A stretch of 64,000 nucleotides of DNA, from positions 6,717,547 through 6,781,546 of the forward strand of contig CM074193.1 in assembly GCA_037179385.1 (NCBI GenBank). Direction: 5' to 3'. A program made the position numbers and the translations under genes. The notes under the pieces were generated by a model. It was not told where the DNA came from. It was given only the letters and a program-made list of their open reading frames with translations, and did no database searches. This stretch comes from Holothuria scabra (lineage: Eukaryota > Echinodermata > Holothuroidea > Aspidochirotida > Holothuriidae). Shown piece after piece: positions 17,041-62,122 of the stretch; positions within the stretch are counted from its first letter, which is position 1, and each line of letters starts with the position of its first letter.

Positions 17041-17770
17041 TATTCATTCTCATTCATCAGAGAAGACACGGTCCTCTTCCTCAACACTCTCGGATACAAT
17101 TCGTTTTAATACTTTGGCCCTTAAAGATATTTTAGTCCCTCTCTATGTCGTTCTATTTTTGTTAAGTATTGCCTAGCTATAGGACAAAATGGACAGGGGC
17201 ATTTCTATGGATCGAATAGTTGTGTTGTTGGAAAAAAAAAAGTATCCGTACAAATGGAAAAAAATACGCAAAACAGAAGGACAGGATAAAGAAAAAAAAA
17301 ACCCTCCGGAAAATGCTATCTAAATAGTGGGCAATATCGACAGACGTTGCCAAACTCGTTCTAATTTACCTAAAACACATGGGTGTCAAACCTGGGAGCA
17401 TCAATCTTTGGGGGGGGGGGGGGAGGGGATGGGGACACATTTACACCCACTGACTTCATATTTTTACAAATTATTTTTTTTTACGGAAGTGACCTTCCCC
17501 CCACCCCCCCACCCACACACACACACACACACAAATTTGAGGAAAGATTGACGCTACTGCTGTAACAATACGTTCATACTCATTTAACTGCTAGCCGGCT
17601 CCGGTTTAGTACTGCTGGTAGGAACATGTTGTTGATACAACAATGACTTCACAAATTATTGCGCAATTTACCATTTTAATTTAAGTGAATAAACTTCAAC
17701 ACTTTATATCTCTGCTCAATAATATCCTATAAAGTAGAGAGTTGAGTAGAGATATTCCTTAACATTATAC
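17041..17770. other. Low-complexity intergenic stretch
   Basis: Contains A-runs (17230-17305), a G-run at 17409-17425, a T-run, C-runs and a (CA)n microsatellite at 17514-17533. No gene or delimited transposon is seen. Confidence 0.5.
17514..17533 (+). repeat. (CA)n microsatellite
   Basis: About ten uninterrupted CA dinucleotides, directly after C-rich sequence. Confidence 0.9.
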
Positions 17771-18044
17771 TAGCTCAGCAAGGCTTCTGGTACGCTTTAC
17801 ACAAATGTAGTGCACTTATAAACTTTGGTCTGGTTATAAATGCCTACATGGGACATATATGCACCATATCTGTCCCATATAAAATTTGGGCCTTATCAAA
17901 TTTTATATGGGCCATATATTCCTTTATATTATATCAAGGATATCGGCCCAATTTTTGTATTTTTGTTATAGCCAGTTACAAATTCCGTATCTGGACCAGG
18001 TATGAACCAGATACAAATTTCCATATATGGATTTTGAGTAAGGG
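17771..18044 (+). mobile_element. Truncated copy of the CCCTTACTC-terminus element
   Basis: It starts with AGCTCAGCAAGGCTTCTGG and shares TACGCTTTACACAAA, then GTGCACTTATAAA-TTTGGTC and CATATATGCACCATA with 51550-51650. It carries the same degenerate CATATCTGG/TATGGGCC body and ends on GATTTTGAGTAAGGG like the right end of the 49650-51994 element. The left terminus and the snRNA-like units are missing, so it is a 5' truncated or deleted relative. Confidence 0.65.
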
Positions 18045-39003: not shown

Positions 39004-41220
39004 GTAACCTATTAGATTCATAGCTCCCAAGTTCCCAGAGGCTAGATGCGGGTCCAACTGATCTGTCCGTTGGTGGATCGCCGGCCTGGGGGAAGGGTAT
39101 AAGGGGAGAGAGTGTCAAAAATTTTTGAATTTGTAAGTGTCTAGATGCAAAATGGTGGCTCTTTTTTTGGCAAATCAGTCAACACAACATTGCTAGGTTA
39201 CTGCCAAAAAGGTTCAGTCCGGTACTAAATTTTTTGCAGAAATGGCCTAGGAAAATATGTGTTCAGAAATTTGCCACGATAATATACGGATACTCACAAA
39301 TGTCCAATAACTAAAACATCTCCTAATCACAACATGCAATCGTGCTTGTTGCCATAAATTTTGGTGCATTACTGGTGCAATTTGCAGTCATCCACTCGAT
39401 TTTACCGCTACAATCAATACCGCAAGTGATTTCCAGTAGGCCTATATGTCTTCCATACATCTAGCATGGCATTCTAGCCATGAAAACAAATCAAGAACGT
39501 TAGGAACTGTTAAGACAGTCCAGAACGTTCGTTTGATGGGAAACTCTTAGACAAGCCCCACCTCTAACCCGCAAAGTGGGCATTCATTTTCTCTACCGAG
39601 CGCAGCGTTGCACGACGTTTACACTACAGTATTTATGCAGTGTCAGGAATATATTCCATACCCGCTACGAAGGTTAGAAAATAGTAGGGTTGTCGCACTA
39701 AAAATACGACTACACAAAAAATATCAAACTTCAAGAATTTGACTGATTTACATTGTTAAGTACCCTTTTCTAAGCAACCATGCCACATTTTTTCAAAATC
39801 CGACCAATATTTTTCAAAATATAGCCCATTTTATGTCTCCATAATCCTTACGGTTTCTCCAAATCGCCATATGTTCAGTGTTACGATCTGCCTGCAAAAG
39901 TTGGTCAAAAACAACATCGTACCTGCTCACTCATACCCTTTGATTATTCATCACTGTGTTACGTACACCAGATGTGCCGGCGTGAATATGCAACGTTACT
40001 GGACAAGACACTCAGTGATCACGAGTCCTTGTCATGATAGCTTGCGTTCTGTGTACGTAACATGCATTAACAAGTGGCACATAGCCTGCTTACACACAGT
40101 CTATGCTATAGCAGTCCGTACATGTGCTTTAATACGCACACGTACACAAATACGAAATTTACTAACCGTACTTCGGTATTGCACGTACAGGTATATACAA
40201 TACAGTACTGTATGTAAGCATACTGGTGGGAAATCCCTTGTTGCTAAGCTGAACAATGGGCTCATACATAAACATATCAATGTCGCCTCAGTACAAAAGA
40301 TGTAGGCAGGGACAAATGGGCTGTTTTATTTAAAGCGAGCGTGCATCAGGGCTGAGCAAAAAATCATTTTTTTTTCTTCGGAAATGGAAAGATCATAAAA
40401 AACGCTACAAAATGATACCTGGAAGCAATTGCGGATTTTTCTCGAACCCATTGTCACCATCATGTCACCAATGTTTTAAGCCCAAAAATGGTAAAGAAAT
40501 ATTAGTTTGGGCAATCACTTCCCTCCATTATAATGGAGAGTTCCTTTTCTTCTTTCTAACAATATATGGGTTGTAGGGGTCGGAGGTTCAGCCCCAATGC
40601 CCGATCAAGTCAAAGATGGCTGTGTGTGGCATTTTACGTGTGACCAAAACACACTTTTGACTGTCACCGTTGCAACGATGCTTCAAAGGGATTGTAAGAA
40701 ACTGTAACATATTTTTTTTTCTTTTTGTTTTAAAGCTTATTTGGTGAAATATCATAGAAGAAATATGTCTTTGGTATACTGATTTTACAGTGTGGGCAAA
40801 ATTTCGACAATTTTGAATGTCGTAAATTCATTTTTTAAACACGCTGTTTTAGCGATTTTGTGTTTGGGTGTGAGTAGTTCCGCGAGAATTTTGGAGAAAA
40901 ATTCTGTGTGTGTGCGACAACCCTAACGATAGCGGTGTTGCGACAGCAAACATCAGTACCTAGGCCTATGCATTGTATAGCGGCGCATGGGGTTGAATAC
41001 TCTATGCTGTGAGATACGATTTCATGAATTTGTAGTTTTCAGTAAGCTGAATTATTTGTTAATTTTTGAGGTTCTCTGGCTACTTCGAAGATTTGAACTG
41101 CGGGTTTTTCAGATAGCTTGGCGGGTCAGCCGTCTTGGGTGTTCAAATGCGGGTCAGATCCGCAAAATGCGGGTCACTTGGGAGGTATGTTGATTACTGG
41201 TTACCGTAACCTATTAGATT
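39004..41220. other. Segment between 15-bp direct repeats
   Basis: GTAACCTATTAGATT occurs at 39004-39018 and 41206-41220. The 2.2 kb between them contains a later hAT-like insertion (39685-40925) and sequence rich in TGCGGGTC near both ends. This may be a long target duplication around an old insertion, or chance. The nature of the inserted sequence is not recognised. Confidence 0.4.
39685..40925. mobile_element. hAT-like non-autonomous element, 1241 bp
   Basis: A 14-bp perfect inverted terminus TAGGGTTGTCGCAC (left) / GTGCGACAACCCTA (right). The flanks GAAAATAG and ACGATAGC resemble each other only partly, so the target duplication is not secure. The interior has an open frame of 144 codons on the plus strand (39871-40305) with no recognisable domain; it is considered chance. 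Confidence 0.65.
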
Positions 41221-41287
41221 ACTGGTTCAGGGTTGGCAGAAGTTAAATAAACCAACTTTAGTACATTGTAGAAAGGAGATAAGCCTT

Positions 41288-42238
41288 ATGTCTATTAATA
41301 TAAATGGTCTGAGAGGGAAAAAACTTGATCTCCAGTCCCTCCTTAATTCTGCTGAACCTGATATCGTTGCATTGCAGGAGACTAAAATTGACAATTCAGT
41401 TACTGATAGGGAGCTTTTTCCAGATTGCCTGAATTATACTGTTTTTAGAAATGACTGCACCCTTGGAGGTGGTGGTACTATGCTGCTTATTAAAAATTAC
41501 CTAGCCCCCACTGGTGCAAATTTTCTTTCCAATGGGTCTGAGTCAGTTACGATCAATTATAGAAATAGAAATCCCTCATTTCATATACTAGGTGACTTTA
41601 ATTTTAGGCTCATTGACTGGAAGACTAGATTGAATAAGGAAAATGAGACCTGTCTCACCAGCAGTAATGGTCAACTCCTTGTTGACATTGTTGATGATTT
41701 TGCCGCAGATCAACTTGTTAAATTTGCCACTAGAGGTAACAATACTCTCGGTTTAGTCATTTCTAATACTCCCAACCTGTACTCTGAAGTCAGCAGTTTT
41801 GACCCACTTAGTGACCATGACATTATCTTTTGTAAATTGAGGTGCTTTTCCCCTAGGCCTAAGCAACCACGTAGACTTATCCAACAGTATTCCAAAGGGG
41901 ATTATGACACTATGAGGTATGAAACCAGAAATTTCGCCACTGGTTACCTAAATGGCAGACAAGATAGTCGTACTATTGAAGAAAACTGGTTCCTCATTAG
42001 GTCTTTTCTCGAGAGAACTGTGAAAAAAAACATCCCGTCCAAACTTTCTAAAACTAGGAAATCTCTTCCCTGGGTCACTGATTATATCTGTAGGATGATA
42101 AAGAGAAGGAACAGACTTCATGCTTTGTACAAGAAGACTAAAAAATTATATTTTTACAATAAGTGGGTTGACCTTCGCGCTAGTATTAAGAAAGAGGTAT
42201 TCAATTCTCATACTGTAGGAAATACATTAACGGCATGA
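41288..42238 (+). pseudogene. LINE endonuclease domain, internally deleted
   Basis: The frame opens with MSININGLRGKKLDLQSLL and has the metal-binding ALQETKI motif. It then jumps from SNGSESVTI straight to PSFHILGDFNF, so the part normally between them (roughly 50-60 residues with the WxR and YRPP motifs) is deleted. The later LGDFN and LSDHDIIFCKL catalytic motifs remain. The usual LDLVxTN motif reads LGLVISN. The domain nicks target DNA in functional relatives; this copy is presumed inactive. Confidence 0.85.
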
Positions 42239-42368
42239 TAGATGATATTACTCATGACTCCAAACCCTTTTGGAGGTATATTAATGGTCAGAGGAAAGAT
42301 AATCATAGTATCCCCCCTAACAGGTCTGTGGTAAAATAGCTAATAGTGATAAGGATAAGGCTGAAGCC

Positions 42369-43992
42369 TTGAATAGCCAGTTCAGTAGTGTTTTTACTAG
42401 AGACTCCTTTGACTCTGTCCCTCTACAGAGAAGACCTATCTGTAGTAGAATGGCTGATATTTCCATCTCTACATTTGGGGTTGAAAAGTTGTTGCAAAAC
42501 CTTAAGATTAGTAAGGCCATGGGTCATGAAAATATACACCCATGGGTTCTTAGAGAGCTTGCTACTGATCTTGCTCCAATGATCAGTCATCTTTTCCAGC
42601 AATCAATCAACAGTGGTCAAGTCCCCAAGGACTGGAAAAGGGCAAATATCTGTCCTATTTTTAAGAAGAACGATAGCTCTCTCCCATCCAACTATCGCCC
42701 TGTCTCTCTTACTTGTATATGTTGTAAGCTACTTGAGCATATTATCAGCTCAAATATGATGGATCACTATCAAGCGAATAACAGCCTTTCCTCTAAACAG
42801 CATGCATTTAGAAAAAATCATAGTTGTGATACACAGTTACTGTCCGTTGTGGGCGATTGGACCTCCGCCTTAGATAAAAATAAACAAGTTGATGTCTTCA
42901 TGCTGAACTTTGAGAAGGCTTTTGATACAGTTCCTCATGAACTACTTAAGACGAAGTTATTCTCCTTGGGGGTGTCTAGGCAAGTCATAAATTGGATTGA
43001 TAACTTTCTTGCTGACCGTTCACAATCAGTTGTTGTTAATGGTACTAGGTCTGCTTCTGCTCCAGTCCTTTCTGGTGTTCCTCAAGGGTCTGTCCTTGGA
43101 CCAGTACTTTTCTTGTCTTATATTAATGATATTGTTAGTGCTGCTTCTTCTGAAGTTAGGTTGTTTGATGACTGTGTTTGCTGTAGAGTCATCAATAATC
43201 CCAGTGACTGCAGTGAGTTACAAAAGGACATTATAAACTTGGGCCAGTGGGCCAAAACTTGGGGTATGAGATTCCATCTGGCTAAGTGTAATGTTATGTC
43301 TGTTACTAGGAAGCATAACCCAATAATCTATAATTATACTCTTAATGGGGCTACTCTGACAAGGGTTGATTCAATTAAGCATCTGGTGGTGACTATCACT
43401 AAGAATCTCAGCTGGGGCAAACATATCCAACTTGTTTGTAACAAGGGAAATAAGATCTTAGGCCTATTACGCAGGAACCTCTCATTTTGTTCCAAAGATG
43501 TGAAATTGGTGGCCTATAAAGGTTTACTAAGGCCCTTGTTGGAGTATGCTTGTTCCCTCTGGGATCCACATCAGATTTCACTCCAAGATAGATTGGAGGG
43601 AGTACAAAAAAGATCTGCTAGGTTTATATCCGGCGAGTACTCCCGTATAGTTGGCTCTATGACTGCACTCCTCAAAGATCTAGGTCTACATACTTTGTCT
43701 GACCGCCGGAGACTTTGCAGACTCATAATTTTTGCCAAAGGTATTTACGGCCAAGCTAACATCCCCCTCTCTAATCTGTGTGAACCCACTCATTGTTCTC
43801 GTAACATGCATGCTTTGCACTTTCGCTCCCCCCCCCCCCCTCTGCAAGGACTAACTGTTTTAAGTACAGTTTTGTCCCTAGCCTAGGCCTAATACTATTC
43901 CGGATTGGAATAACCTCCCAGAGAGTCTTATTGCGGGGGCCATAAGTCACCCAAAGCCAGTGGATTTCATTATGAACTCTTTGAGGGCCTGA
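42369..43992 (+). pseudogene. LINE reverse transcriptase, inactivated
   Basis: A 505-residue open frame spans fingers, palm and thumb. PSNYRPVSLT lies at residues 106-115, and motif A VFMLNFEKAFDTVPH at 176-190. Motif B is LSGVPQGSVLGPVLF, 234-248. The catalytic box reads LFDD (265-268) where relatives have FADD, so one residue is missing next to the catalytic aspartates. The frame then shifts at a C-run near 43835. The expected C-terminus (IPDWNNLPESL to MNSLRA) continues in another frame to the stop at 43990-43992. It joins upstream to the endonuclease frame through at least two frame breaks. Confidence 0.9.
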
Positions 43993-48189: not shown

Positions 48190-48452
48190 GAGAATTGGAA
48201 CTGTTTGGGATGATGAAAGTATGCCTTTAAGTCCTCCCGACCCCGCTAGCAAGAGTCGTCCGGCGAAACCAATGCAAACTGTAAACTGCTTCCCGGCGAA
48301 GAAGCTATGACTTCCACTGAAGTTCCACACTTGACCAACCTCACGGCACTCAGACCATTTATATTAGTGGTCTGTCATGTATGGCTCCCTTCTAGACTGG
48401 ATGAAAAGAACAGATACTACACATGATCTTAGCCAAAAGGCCGAGAAACCAG
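48190..48452 (-). ncRNA. U2 snRNA-headed unit, minus-strand copy (likely retroposed)
   Basis: On the minus strand it starts near 48452 with TTCTCGGCCTTTTGGCTAAG, then ATCATGTGTAGTATCTGTTC, nearly identical to the U2 snRNA 5' domain including the GTAGTA branch-site-pairing box. After about 50 bases the sequence leaves U2 and follows a body shared with the unit at 50611-50831: AAATGGTCTGA, GAGGTTGGTCAAGTGT, a GCTTC-GAAGC hairpin, GGTTTCGCCG, and GGGTCGGGAGGACTT. No U2 Sm site or 3' stem-loops are seen. It is best read as a SINE-like element with a U2-derived head; a novel snRNA-like gene is the alternative. Confidence 0.7.
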
Positions 48453-49330: not shown

Positions 49331-49684
49331 TATAAAATAAGAGTTAGAACAGGAAGGTTTTATGTGAAGAGGAATTTACAAAAATATCAATTTAGCTTGC
49401 GGTATCTCTTGATCATTTAGTGTCACATACGGTAAATATCCGATTTTGCCATTGCACTACACAGCATGTCAAGTTGCACTTTGCGGCTCCACATAAAGCG
49501 CGCCGTAAACTTTGTTTCTTTTGGAATTTGGCGAAATGAAAAAGAGGTTTTCTGACCCGAAAAATGGGGGATAGAAGCATGCTCCCACCTCTCTAATTTT
49601 TCACTGGGGCTATCGTTTTCTACGCCTGTGACATGGTGTCACTTCCAAACCCTTACTCAAAATCCAGATATGGATTGATATCTG

Positions 49685-49990
49685 GATATATCTGGTTAAA
49701 TAAAGCCTTTATATGGCCATATCAAGCCAGATATGACTTGATGAAATGCCTTCCCAGATATGCAAATAAAGTTTGATATGGCCATATCAAGCCAGATATA
49801 ACTTGATTCAATCCCTGTCCAGATATGCAAATAAAGTTTTATATGGCCATATCAAGCCGTATATAAATTGATGAAATACCTTCCAGATATACAAGTAAAG
49901 TTTTATATGGCCATATCAAGCCAGATATAACTGATTAAAATACCACGACAGAATTGCATATAAACTTTTACATAGCCATATTAATACTTT
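49685..49990 (+). repeat. Minisatellite, about 64-bp period
   Basis: About four and a half copies of a unit containing TTTATATGGCCATATCAAGC, CAGATATGACTTGATGAAAT and CTTCCCAGATATGCAAATAAA. Copies diverge progressively to the right. Confidence 0.85.
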
Positions 49991-50402
49991 TTGGCTTAAT
50001 TTGTGTACATGTCCTACATAAAGACCTTCTCTGGAAGCTGAACAAGTATCAGCAAACCAAAATGAGAAGATTCAAACCATATTCAGCCATATTATACTAA
50101 CATATGCAAATAAATTTCCAATGTGGGTGTGGTCAGGAATTTAGGGCCCTGATTTTCTTTTCATTGTAATTAAGTGTGTAATATGTGAAAAATCATGAAA
50201 CCTTCAACAAAATACGTTGAGATATTGCCCCATATGATAATTTAAACCAACAATGCGGTGCAAAGATTTAAAAGTAGGAATTTCAAAGCAGTTTTTATTT
50301 CACTATTAAATAATTTAACAACTTCAAATACTTAAGTCAATGTTGTTCAATGTGCATTCAAATTTCAAATTTGTTATAGATGTTCAGATAGCCCTTAACA
50401 TT

Positions 50403-50599
50403 ATGCTGGCTCCAGTCTGTAGCTTCTGTTCTATTCAGCCAGTCTAGAGCAGGACCACTCAGTGTTTGCCCTTTGGAGGGCGTACTTGTCCATTTGGGAC
50501 GTTAAGCTCCTTAAGGGAGCAGAACTCCTCCGGGAGTAATCGTTTGGTTTTCGCCCCTTGGCTCTTCGCCAGAGAGTCGTGGGGACTTTTAGAAAAAAG
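50403..50599 (+). ncRNA. Structured snRNA-like unit 1
   Basis: It begins with a short hairpin (CTGGCTCCAG) and then GTAGCTTCTGTTCTATTCAG, which aligns with the GTAGTATCTGTTCTTTTCA part of the U2-headed unit 2. It has successive hairpins: GCCC-GGGC (50468-50481), GTCC-GGAC, GCTCC-GGAGC (50506-50520) and ACTCC-GGAGT (50524-50537). It ends in GTCGTGGGGACTTTTAGAAAAAAG. The A-rich end recurs in all units and could be a retroposon tail. Confidence 0.6.
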
Positions 50600-50610
50600 A
50601 TTATGCTGGC

Positions 50611-50831
50611 TCGCTTCTCGGCCTTTTGGCTAAGATCATGTGTAGTATCTGTTCTTTTCACCCAGTCAAGAATGGAGCCATGCATGGCTCCAGTAATGTA
50701 AATGGTCTGAAGGCCTTGAGGTTGGTCAAGTGTTGTCCTTAAGTGGACGTATAGCTTCTTCGGGAAGCAGTATCAAGTTTGGTTTCACCGAACGGCCCTT
50801 TGCCAGAGGGTCGGGAGGACTTTGGAAAAAA
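50611..50831 (+). ncRNA. U2-headed unit 2 with nearly intact U2 5' domain
   Basis: TCGCTTCTCGGCCTTTTGGC, then TAAGATCATGTGTAGTATCT and GTTCTT, reproduce the first 46 or so bases of U2 snRNA with about one change, so stem I and the branch-site-pairing GTAGTA box are kept. The remainder is not U2. A perfect GGAGCCATGCATGGCTCC hairpin follows, then GTCC-GGAC, a GCTTC-GAAGC hairpin (50754-50768), and a terminal CCCT-AGGG hairpin before GGAGGACTTTGGAAAAAA. The same architecture is found on the minus strand at 48190-48452. Function is unknown. Confidence 0.7.
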
Positions 50832-50835
50832 TATG

Positions 50836-51058
50836 CTGGCTCAGATCCTGGGCATGACGTTAAACTGCATCCAGGTTGTGGCTTCTGTTCTATTCAGCCA
50901 GTCTAGAGCAGGACCACTCAGTGTTTGCCCTTTGGAGGGCGTACTTGTCCATTTGGGACGTTAAGCTCCTTAAGGGAGCAGAACTCCTCCGGGAGTAATC
51001 GTTTGGTTTTCGCCCCTTGGATCTTCGCCAGAGAGTCGTGGGGACTTATAGAAAAAAG
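50836..51058 (+). ncRNA. Structured snRNA-like unit 3
   Basis: The head is replaced by GATCCTGGGCATGACG with the partner GCATCCAGGTTGTGG, forming a CCTGG-CCAGG stem where U2 has stem I. From GCTTCTGTTCTATTCAG onward it is almost identical to unit 1 and ends GGGACTTATAGAAAAAAG. Confidence 0.6.
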
Positions 51059-51281
51059 CTCAGATCGTCCTGGGCATGACGTTAAACTGCATCCAGGTTG
51101 TGGCTTCTTTTCTATTCAGCCAGTCTAGAGCAGGACCACTCAGTGTTTGCCCTTTGGAGGGCGTACTTGTACATTTGGGACGTTAAGCTCTTTAAGGGAG
51201 CAGAACTCCTCCGGGAGTAATCGTTTGGTTTTCGCCCCTTGGCTCTTCGCCAGAAAGTCGTGGGAACTTTTAGAAAAAAAG
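51059..51281 (+). ncRNA. Structured snRNA-like unit 4
   Basis: Near-identical to unit 3, including the CCTGGGCATGACG / GCATCCAGG head. A few substitutions (GTACATTTGGGAC, GCTCTTTAAGGGAGC, CAGAAAGTCG) mostly fall in loops or at wobble-tolerant positions. It ends TTTTAGAAAAAAAG. Confidence 0.6.
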
Positions 51282-51299
51282 GCTCAGATCGAAGGCCGA

Positions 51300-51558
51300 G
51301 TATAGCGGCCGAGTATGGAAGATCGAGTATAGCGATTGTGCAGGCTTTCAGCCTCTCGGCCTACTGGCCGTGGCTTCTGTTCTATTCAGCCAGTCTAGAG
51401 CAGGACCACTCAGTGTTTGCCCTTTGGAGGGCGTACTTGTCCATTTGGGACGTTAAGCTCCTTAAGGGAGCAGAACTCCTCCGGGAGTAATCGTTTGGTT
51501 TTCGCCCCTTGGCTCTTCGCCAGAGAGTGGTGGGGACTTTTAGAAAAAAGCTCAGAAG
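51300..51558 (+). ncRNA. Structured snRNA-like unit 5
   Basis: It is preceded by three short CGAGTATAGCG / CGAGTATGG repeats (51297-51345). The head CAGCCTCTCGGCCTACTGGC CGTGG is a diverged U2 stem I in which the stem bases still pair (CGGCC with GGCCG). The body is as in unit 1 and ends TTTTAGAAAAAAGCTCAG. Confidence 0.55.
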
Positions 51559-51599
51559 GCTTCTGATACGCTTTACACAAAAGCAGTGCACTAATAAAT

Positions 51600-51990
51600 T
51601 TTGGTCCAGTCATATATGGTCCAGACATGGAACATATATGCACCATACTTGTCTCCTAAATATGGGATCAATACAGTAAATCTTTATATAAACCAGATAT
51701 GGCGCTGCTTTATATAGGATCAGTATGAAATAGCTTTATATAAACCATATATAGTATTGCGTTATATGGTTCATATTTGTTCCAGATACAGACCTGATCC
51801 AGATAAAATTTTTGTCTGGCCCATATATGTATTAGATCTGGTTCTGGTACAGATCAAGGTTATATCTGCCCAATTTTTTATCTGGCCCAGATATAAATCC
51901 CATATCTGCAGCAGATACGGGCCAGATATGAAATCCATATCTGACCCATATATGGAATTTCATATCTGGCCCATATCTGGATTTGGAGTA
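51600..51990 (+). repeat. Degenerate CATATCTGG satellite arm
   Basis: Short irregular repeats of CCATATCTGGCCCAGATATG type, many self-complementary. They form the right arm of the 49650-51994 element. The sequence loses clear periodicity towards 51700. Confidence 0.7.
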
Positions 51991-52049
51991 AGGGAAGGCG
52001 TACCGGCGCATTTCAGTTAGGGGACAGAAGATCTTCGAGTTGCCCGAAA

Positions 52050-60785: not shown

Positions 60786-60923
60786 TACTATTCTCTGAGC
60801 AATGAAAAATTAAACTGACTAACTTTGGCTATTATTAAGTTTGGAGAAATGTTCCACAAATAACATTGCATAATGAACTACTATAGCTAGCCTAGGCCTA
60901 AGCCTACACTTTTTTCTTCACAG

Positions 60924-62122
60924 AATGGTTGAAAGAGAGACAACATGATGTAATGTTTGAAGACCTTCCAGAAAACCAGTTAGATGAGCTCTTGAGGCAA
61001 TTCTATGGAGAAGTCTGCACAAAGAAAGGCAACCAGTATGGCAAGTCAGCAATGGCTGGCATAAGATCAGCAATCAACAGGCATTTGGGTGGTGCACCAT
61101 TTAACAGAAACATTAACATTATAACAGATCCTAAATTCCGCAGATCTAATAACATGTCTGTTGGTCTGATAAAACAAATGAAGAAAGATGGTTTGGATAA
61201 GACCAAACACCACACTGCCATTAGTGACAAAGACCTCAAGAAGCTGTATTCATCAGATGTCTTCAACAATGAAAGTCCACTGAGCCTCCTGAGGAAAGTC
61301 TGGTTCAATGTGACATTTTATTTTGGACGTAGAGGAAGTGAAGGTCAGCATCGCCTTACCAAGGATTCATTCACTGTAGGAAGAGATGATGCTGGCAGGG
61401 AGTTTGTTGAAATGTCGATGAATGAAAAAGAAAAAAATCACCCTGGCACTACTTCTGATGGCCAGCACAAACAGTCACGGATGTACAACATTCCTGATGA
61501 TGAAGCAAATTGCCCTGTTTTTGCCTTCAAGTTGTACATGGAGAAGCTAAATCCTAATACAAACACTTTCTTTCAGCGTCCACTCAACACAAAACCAAAT
61601 GATGAAAGTGCCCCTTGGTTCATGAATGCTGTCATTGGTGAGAAAAAGTTGCAGGGGATGATGAAGGAGATCTCTCAACTTGCAAAACTGTCATGTATCT
61701 ATACCAATCACTGTATCAGGGCAACAACCTGCACAGTCCTTGACAAAGCGGGCCACAAGACCCATGAAATCATGGCAGTGACTGGACACAAAAGCGAAAG
61801 TAGTGTTCGCTCCTACGTAAACCGCTTGAGCAGTGGGCAAAAGAGGCAATTATCAGATAATTTAAGCGCCCAGTGTGTAAGTTCTAGCGAGTACACTCAA
61901 ACCGGCAACAGCCTAGTGTTACACAGTTGCGAAAACACTACGGATCAACGTAACGTCGTTAGAGTACCTCGAACTGATGCGGAGCCTAACGTTAGGCCTA
62001 GCACTAACAGTAACACCAACCTGTCAATGTCGTTCGAAGAGCAAAGCATAGCTTTATCCTCAATATTTCAGGGCTGCAACTTTCGTGCACCACTAAATGT
62101 GACTGTTAATAAGTCTTCGTGA
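60924..62122 (+). CDS. Crypton-type tyrosine recombinase, exon 2
   Basis: It follows a clean acceptor (TTTTTTCTTCACAG ending 60923). The 399 residues include a SAM-like N-terminal domain (GVQIFKEWL to QYGKSAMAGIRSAINRHL) and the DUF3504-type catalytic domain of the KIAA1958/Crypton family. The catalytic set is visible. The first arginine lies in YFGRRGSEGQ (residue 193 or 194 counting both exons), the HxxR in NHCIRATTC (H320, R323), and the third histidine in TGHKSESS (H346). The nucleophile tyrosine is in VRSYVNR (Y355). The C-terminal 90 residues are low-complexity and polar. Apart from the exon 1 stop the gene is undamaged. Family members are transposon recombinases or domesticated derivatives. 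Confidence 0.88.

What the first reader, a model, noticed from the sequence alone, without database searches (positions are those of the whole stretch)
50403..51558. Tandem array of U2-headed, structured snRNA-like units
Five units of about 180-220 bp lie head to tail. One has a nearly intact U2 snRNA 5' domain (stem I plus GTAGTA branch-site box) fused to a non-U2 body of serial hairpins; the others keep only the TCTGTTCT part. Hairpins are maintained although sequences differ: GCTTC-GAAGC in unit 2 corresponds to ACTCC-GGAGT in the other units. The U2 stem I is replaced by an unrelated CCTGG-CCAGG stem in units 3 and 4, and by CGGCC-GGCCG in unit 5. Such paired changes suggest selection on RNA structure at some time. 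U1/U2-headed SINEs (SINEU) are known from crocodilians; I know of none described in this kind of genome.
Basis: partly seen in the sequence, partly recalled or inferred. Interest (0 to 1): 0.82.

Follow-up and report, generated by a model that had tools for sequence, protein, structure and literature searches.

The report
U2 snRNA-headed SINEs stacked in tandem
The five-unit array is a pile-up of short jumping elements, some carrying the first 51 letters of the animal's own U2 splicing RNA; one element of the same set sits inside a U2 gene behind that gene's promoter, which suggests how such elements obtain U2 heads.

Summary
The array is real and is a stack of SINE insertions, not snRNA genes. 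Units 1, 3, 4, 5 are one SINE type (B, 93.5-98.9% identical); unit 2 and a copy on the other strand at 48.2-48.45 kb are a U2-headed type (A). An empty copy of the host site lies near 17.75 kb, and target-site duplications separate the units. In the 1.19-Gb genome (unnamed) the A head-body junction occurs 1,357 times exactly and 5,382 times with up to 3 mismatches, a B word 1,562 times, reversed controls 0. The A consensus head equals nt 2-51 of three U2 genes read in this genome, 50 of 50. One B SINE sits inside a U2 gene behind its promoter, at the site Keno and Utopia use; a second insertion of about 5.3 kb, nearly confined to the U2 cluster, uses that site too. I propose that SINEs entering U2 genes inherit promoter and head. 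Closest known: crocodilian SINEU. The intermediate is seen; transcription and mobilisation are inferred.

The parts
49650..51994 (.). Host element of the array: repeat with 24-bp inverted ends (49650-49673 and 51971-51994), probably a non-autonomous DNA transposon
   Evidence: pair I6 (96% complementary); one search end search; transposon class inferred, no clear TSD seen
17750..18044 (+). Another copy of the host element with the target site empty (CCTTAACATTATACTAGCTCAGcAAGGCTTCTGG), ending in the same 24-bp end at 18021-18044
   Evidence: sequence; joined array flanks match 17750-17879 in one block, 81.2% over 133, E 1.3e-27
50400..50412 (+). Left copy of target site ATTATGCTGGCTC
50413..50599 (+). 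Unit 1: type B SINE, 5'-truncated, tail AAAAAAG
50600..50612 (+). Target-site duplication ATTATGCTGGCTC between units 1 and 2
50611..50831 (+). Unit 2: type A SINE with U2 head (50611-50660 = host U2 nt 2-51), tail AAAAAA; its first two letters are shared with the duplication
   Evidence: (RF00004 62.4 bits)
50832..50842 (+). Target-site duplication TATGCTGGCTC between units 2 and 3 (continues as AGA to 50845)
   Evidence: (L001)
50846..51057 (+). Unit 3: type B SINE with CCTGG-CCAGG head
51058..51064 (+). Target-site duplication GCTCAGA between units 3 and 4
51065..51281 (+). Unit 4: type B SINE with CCTGG-CCAGG head
51282..51288 (+). Target-site duplication GCTCAGA between units 4 and 5
51289..51549 (+). 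Unit 5: type B SINE with a longer, compound head that includes a U2-like stem
   Evidence: D12; module Q
51550..51556 (+). Right copy of target site GCTCAGA, continuing into the host element
48222..48450 (-). Second, older type A SINE with U2 head; 82.7% to unit 2 over 220 bp; its upstream 38-40 bp resemble the array's upstream flank
   Evidence: (I11)

Best explanation
The array is a series of SINE insertions at nearly one point of a transposon copy; each insertion duplicated the site, so the next could land beside it. Shown: types A (U2-headed) and B belong to a dispersed SINE set with target-site duplications, and the A head is the first 51 nt of the host's own U2 RNA. Inferred: SINEs gain U2 heads by entering a U2 gene at about nt 38/39, the Keno/Utopia site. 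The staggered cut leaves U2 nt 1 to about 46-51 between the intact U2 promoter and the SINE; the promoter makes a chimeric RNA (U2 head, SINE body, A-run, first target letters GTA), which is reverse-transcribed into other places. Repeated rounds stack heads; type B keeps what looks like an older U2 remnant (TTCTGTTCTATTCAGC). Confidence by step: successive SINE insertions 0.95; U2 origin of the head 0.98; head gained through U2-gene insertion rather than template switching 0.65.
For: Empty site near 17.75 kb; duplications at each junction. 40 full-length matches at 94-100% on many chromosomes, best 40 of 4138 candidates; junction counts 1,357 and 5,382, B word 1,562, reversed controls 0. TSD score 9 or more in 13 of 30 copies against 16 of 569 shuffled pairings. 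A consensus head = U2 nt 2-51, 50 of 50, in each of three genes read. L052: B SINE in a U2 gene, upstream 224 of 230 bases as in an intact gene, U2 nt 1-46, SINE, A6, then U2 from nt 36. Same U2 site as Keno/Utopia (PMC4640811). Nine tail-to-U2 junctions, 8 in or at the edge of the U2 cluster; seven of the eight matches to one such insertion's 3' end lie there. GTA after the A-run in 20 of 30 dispersed A copies. Three dispersed places join an A-like tail to the U2 site, control 0. Extra head modules between TSD and U2 start in 6 of 30 copies.
Against: No A junction directly behind the U2 promoter (0 with up to 3 mismatches). The L052 junction has no dispersed progeny: itself plus one place on C16 with 3 mismatches, not read. 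The 218 bp before one U2 junction share only a short A-rich end with the SINEs, so the partner element is not shown. Most dispersed copies are not at U2-like sites.
Confidence: 0.65

Rival explanations
1. Template switching: while copying a SINE body at a new site the reverse transcriptase jumped onto U2 snRNA and copied it to its 5' end, so the head came from RNA and not from insertion into a U2 gene.
For: Such chimeras are documented for U6 and other snRNAs (PMC4476161, passages). The head starts at U2 +1 and ends inside U2. No A copy behind a U2 promoter was found. The extra head modules in 6 of 30 copies would also fit jumps.
Against: A standing B insertion in a U2 gene with U2 nt 1-46 upstream; tail letters GTA in 20 of 30 copies equal the U2 target letters; in that paper internal initiation on an snRNA during switching was not seen for U6 but was for U5. 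It leaves the source of transcription open.
Confidence: 0.3
2. The array grew by tandem duplication (unequal exchange) of one unit, as a young satellite, rather than by separate insertions.
For: B units are 93.5-98.9% identical; units 3, 4 and 5 share the GCTCAGA junction.
Against: Heads and 5' ends differ between units with nearly identical bodies (units 1 and 3 against 5: 98.9% and 98.4%); junction letters differ; mixed arrays stand at other loci (at least 10 of 30 A loci have another SINE of the set within 300 bp). Units 3 and 4 could still be one duplication.
Confidence: 0.1
3. The units are functional small nuclear RNA genes with a U2-like head, kept by selection on structure.
For: Two of four folded units are more stable than shuffles (unit 2 z -2.97, unit 5 z -3.40); 10 of 53 pairs double-changed between A and B; stem positions vary a little less (3.5% against 4.7%).
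Against: The other two folded are not (48-kb copy z -1.36, unit 3 z -1.09); within A, covariation term +3.3 and more breaks than kept changes; no Sm site or U2 3' half; thousands of dispersed copies with TSDs.
Confidence: 0.03

Closest known systems
SINEU (Kojima 2015, GBE 7:1702; crocodilian SINEs with U1/U2 heads)
   Same: snRNA-derived head, dispersed short retroposon; by recall of the abstract also recurrent head addition, and insertion preference for a DNA transposon
   Different: Other animal; head identical to the host's U2; several further head modules; a relative standing inside a U2 gene. Sequence relation not tested: the paper is not held
Keno and Utopia (U2-gene-specific non-LTR retrotransposons, PMC4640811)
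   Same: Same insertion point in U2 genes for the B SINE of L052 and for the insertion ending at L053
   Different: The SINEs have no coding capacity of that kind and are mostly dispersed; the coding content of the L053 insertion was not read
snRNA-LINE chimeric pseudogenes by template switching (PMC4476161)
   Same: snRNA fused 5' of a retroposon between TSDs
   Different: There separate one-off chimeras, mostly U6; here one fusion type multiplied to more than a thousand exact junction copies
Ciona U2_sat / SINE-derived satellites
   Same: U2-derived or SINE-derived tandem repeats (PMC4640811 passage; PMC11121367 seen only in a listing)
   Different: Here units are separated by target-site duplications and carry unlike heads

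Membership tests
SINEU | Head derived from U1 or U2 snRNA | tested here: met
   A consensus head = host U2 nt 2-51, 50 of 50; type B keeps only a short U2-like remnant
SINEU | Short, dispersed, high-copy element with target-site duplications | tested here: met
SINEU | Repeated addition of heads at the 5' end (recalled) | tested here: met
   extra module between TSD and U2 start in 6 of 30 copies; several heads on B bodies
SINEU | Mobilised by a Tx1-clade LINE with target preference (recalled) | not tested
   No partner LINE identified; one search found no long shared 3' end with the U2-site insertion
SINEU | Sequence relation to crocodilian SINEU bodies | not testable with these tools
   sequences and paper not held
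Pol III SINE (tRNA/5S/7SL type) | Internal A and B boxes | tested here: not met
   Best A- and B-box matches in the 6 units: none beats 300 shuffles at the 5% level (closest 10%, A box of the 48-kb copy); TTTT lies inside the U2 heads of both A units
U2 snRNA gene | Full-length U2 with Sm site and 3' stems behind a U2 promoter | tested here: not met
   window hits align only with the 5' domain (62.4 and 52.3 bits, against 182.9-186.6 for the scored true genes); no promoter copy
Keno/Utopia (for the insertion ending at L053) | Insertion at the U2 nt 38/39 site | tested here: met
   site as in PMC4640811
Keno/Utopia (for the insertion ending at L053) | Reverse transcriptase with AP-type or restriction-like endonuclease | not tested
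Satellite DNA | Units arise by tandem duplication | tested here: inconclusive
   TSDs and unlike heads speak against; units 3 and 4 could be a duplication

The most novel reading that the evidence does not exclude
Host U2 genes act as head-and-promoter factories for SINEs: a SINE enters a U2 gene at the Keno/Utopia site, is transcribed from the U2 promoter with a U2 head and a target-matching GTA tail, and seeds a new U2-headed lineage; repeated rounds build the modular heads. L052 is a standing intermediate of this cycle.
Probability: 0.5. Interest if true: 0.82.

Novelty: new variant of a known kind. Interest (0 to 1): 0.66.

Why it matters
How promoterless snRNA-headed SINEs arise and get transcribed is, to my knowledge, open. 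A SINE caught inside a U2 gene, with the expected head length and tail letters in its dispersed relatives, turns this into a testable series of steps. In the rows and passages seen from searches (listings capped; most subscription papers not held) I saw no U2-headed SINE outside reptiles and birds and no SINE inside a U2 gene, so a large U2-headed family in another animal would widen the class. It also shows how site duplication builds tandem SINE arrays that resemble RNA gene clusters.

Tried and rejected
Other RNA origin of the heads: Rfam at E up to 10 on units 3-5 gave 4 weak hits, all far below gathering (best SNORA18, 18.7 bits against 70). 20 of the 30 A loci scanned at E up to 0.05 gave U2 in all 20 (19 above gathering, L027 at 45.6 just below), one tRNA and two miRNA-like matches.

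Strict target specificity: rejected, since most of the 30 A copies lie elsewhere; but 4 of 30 (L001, L009, L019, L027) lie at or beside the array's target, and L006, L012, L020, L024 lie within about 15 bp of each other in another repeat. L004, L018, L023, L026 share one TSD and may be one insertion copied with its host repeat.

Discarded or failed: a pair count with misplaced columns; a script that stopped with an error, redone; the flank test, whose random draws include overlaps with the query, is not used as a probability. Pattern scans of viral contigs and genome contigs: 0 matches. A general-consensus U2 word is absent from this genome; the host U2 reads GATCATGTG. Organism: the best named relatives of two window proteins, both of mobile elements, are Ptychodera (42%) and Apostichopus (64%); unnamed records scored higher, so I do not identify the animal.

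Full report
What is in the window. Searches confirm five head-to-tail units at 50413-51549. Units 1, 3, 4 and 5 share one body (type B; 93.5-98.9% identical). Unit 2 has another body and a U2 head (type A; RF00004, 62.4 bits). A second type A copy lies on the - strand at 48222-48450 (52.3 bits; 82.7% to unit 2 over 220 bp). A profile search of the window finds these six and one chance-level match (E 0.17).

The array is an insertion. It sits inside an element with 24-bp inverted ends (49650-49673 / 51971-51994, 96%). Another copy, at 17.75-18.04 kb, has no SINE: the array's joined flanks match it in one block across the junction (81.2% over 133, E 1.3e-27). ATTATGCTGGCTC stands before unit 1 and again before unit 2, TATGCTGGCTC after unit 2, and GCTCAGA before unit 3 and after units 3, 4 and 5. 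I read these as target-site duplications; each insertion rebuilt the site for the next. Unlike 5' ends on bodies 98.4-98.9% identical (units 1 and 3 against 5) fit separate insertions better than tandem duplication; units 3 and 4 could be either.

The family. The genome (1,192,178,128 bases, 31 contigs) was searched with unit 2: 40 of 4138 first-look candidates were scored; 40 full-length matches are 94-100% identical on many chromosomes, and two more are partial. The exact head-body junction occurs 1,357 times (683 + and 674 -), with up to three mismatches 5,382 times, and a B word 1,562 times, each with 0 in the reversed control. The body search with B lists only 41 places; the tool says that it skips words very common in this genome. 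In 20 systematic 10-kb stretches, 5 hold a copy of A or B (L034 with several in a row, L038, L039, L044; L048 for B). Scaled up, that is some 30,000 loci, with a wide error since only 5 were observed. The 30 best A copies differ by 1.4-4.1% from their consensus; the sampled A matches are older (71-86%), the sampled B copy is 98.8%.

TSDs and stacked heads. With a narrow search 13 of 30 copies reach TSD score 9, against 16 of 569 shuffled pairings. With a wide search, for which no shuffle control was made, 20 of 30 reach score 10; one of these (L009) is spurious because both sides are SINE. In 6 of 30 the TSD lies 9-42 nt upstream of the U2 start, so extra sequence precedes U2. One module (P) has 8 matches, before A, B and C bodies. 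B bodies carry several heads; the CCTGG-CCAGG head of units 3 and 4 recurs in L017, L025, L028 and in L048, a lone copy with TSD GCTACGGACCAGCT. At least 10 of 30 A loci have another SINE of the set within 300 bp, so arrays like the window's are frequent.

The head is the host's own U2. RF00004 finds true U2 genes in a tandem cluster on C1, 4.296-4.398 Mb (46 scored of 80,574 candidates, all 46 in that cluster, 182.9-186.6 bits). Three genes read in L051 begin ATCGCTTC...CTGTTCTTTTCAGCTTAATATC; the A consensus equals nt 2-51 in 50 of 50 places and diverges at once. Only the 5' domain is kept: no Sm site, no 3' stems.

The U2-gene intermediate. One exact B word maps into the U2 cluster (only the first 100 of 1,562 places were listed, so others may exist). 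L052 shows a B SINE inside a U2 gene: upstream 224 of 230 bases as in an intact gene, U2 nt 1-46, SINE, A6, then GTATCTGTTCT (nt 36-46) and the rest of U2. The duplication is 11 bp, or 8 bp if GTA is counted to the tail. Utopia insertions resume U2 at nt 39 and Keno uses the same 3' site (PMC4640811: section 6 read, other passages). In this genome nine places join an A-rich tail to resumed U2, 8 of them in or at the edge of the cluster. The 218 bases before one of them (L053) have 8 matches genome-wide: 5 full-length (98-100%) and 2 partial in or at the edge of the cluster, one at 78% about 110 kb further on. Four of the five full ones stand 6.08 kb apart; with a U2 unit of about 0.73 kb this suggests an insertion of about 5.3 kb. 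Two of the nine junctions (C1:4386104 and C1:5467112) have no L053-like match, and one L053 match (C1:4330942) has no listed junction. The coding content is unread.

The model and its limits. A SINE that enters U2 at that site keeps U2 nt 1 to about 46-51 next to the U2 promoter; the chimeric RNA would start at U2 +1 and, read into the target, end AAAAAAGTA. The A family fits: it starts at U2 +1 or +2 in many copies, its head ends at nt 51, and GTA follows the A-run in 20 of 30 copies. Three dispersed places join an A-like tail to the U2 site (up to 3 mismatches, control 0; letters not shown). Against it: no A junction behind the U2 promoter; no progeny of the L052 junction, only itself and a 3-mismatch place on C16; no long 3' similarity to the U2-site insertion. 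Template switching (PMC4476161, passages) remains the main rival. Transcription and mobilisation are inferred. Pol III boxes do not stand out: none of 6 units beats shuffles at 5%.

RNA structure. Between A and B 10 of 53 consensus pairs show double changes, covariation term -1.15, on about three independent sequences. Within A the covariation term is a penalty (+3.3) and 2 of 65 pairs show double changes. Over 38 copies and five stems, one-sided breaks are 36, one-sided kept 22, two-sided kept 4, two-sided broken 1; stem positions change slightly less than others (3.5% against 4.7%). Folding beats shuffles clearly for units 2 and 5 (z -2.97, -3.40) and not for the 48-kb copy and unit 3 (z -1.36, -1.09). 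This fits decaying copies of a structured source RNA, not selected RNA genes.

Literature. SINEU is named in two Repbase papers (PMC4455052, PMC5753468; passages); the second credits Kojima 2015 with sequence-specific Tx1 elements in crocodilians. PMC8010984 (passage) names avian, crocodilian and mammalian genomes for SINEU and SINE28 together. The hagfish SINE paper names snRNA heads in general (PMC7245038, passages); PMC13174262 only cites Kojima 2015 at the searched terms. Kojima 2015 itself is not held; what I say of it beyond these passages is recalled. The listings of searches are capped; among the rows shown I saw no U2-headed SINE outside those animals and no SINE inside a U2 gene.

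Noticed in passing
G000 C1:4.325-4.401 Mb (L053 for one end): Insertion of about 5.3 kb repeated in the U2 gene cluster at the Keno/Utopia site, nearly confined to the cluster: probably a U2-specific non-LTR retrotransposon.
   Followed up: partly
window 41210-43886 (+): LINE-like pair of open frames: endonuclease (PF03372) and reverse transcriptase (PF00078) in two ORFs; best named relative Apostichopus, 64%.
   Followed up: partly
window 60902-62122 (+): DUF3504 / tyrosine-recombinase ORF of 406 aa, Crypton-like.
   Followed up: partly
window 49698-49981 and 51611-51994: The host element of the array carries internal direct and inverted repeats of a CCAGATATGG-like motif.
   Followed up: no
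L004, L018, L023, L026 near 1500: Four A copies at one position with one TSD in a repeat: a SINE probably copied along with its host repeat.
   Followed up: no
L027 481-780 and 1720-1900; L029 1700-1980: A third body type (C) with the same 3' style; in L027 it is followed by another U2-like head.
   Followed up: partly
G000 C1:42822129-42849590: Four exact B words about 9.1 kb apart, perhaps a tandem repeat of about 9 kb that contains a SINE.
   Followed up: no
L021 near the A copy: A doubled U2 start (AGCTTCTCGGCCT before GGCTTCTCGGCC) between TSD and body.
   Followed up: no
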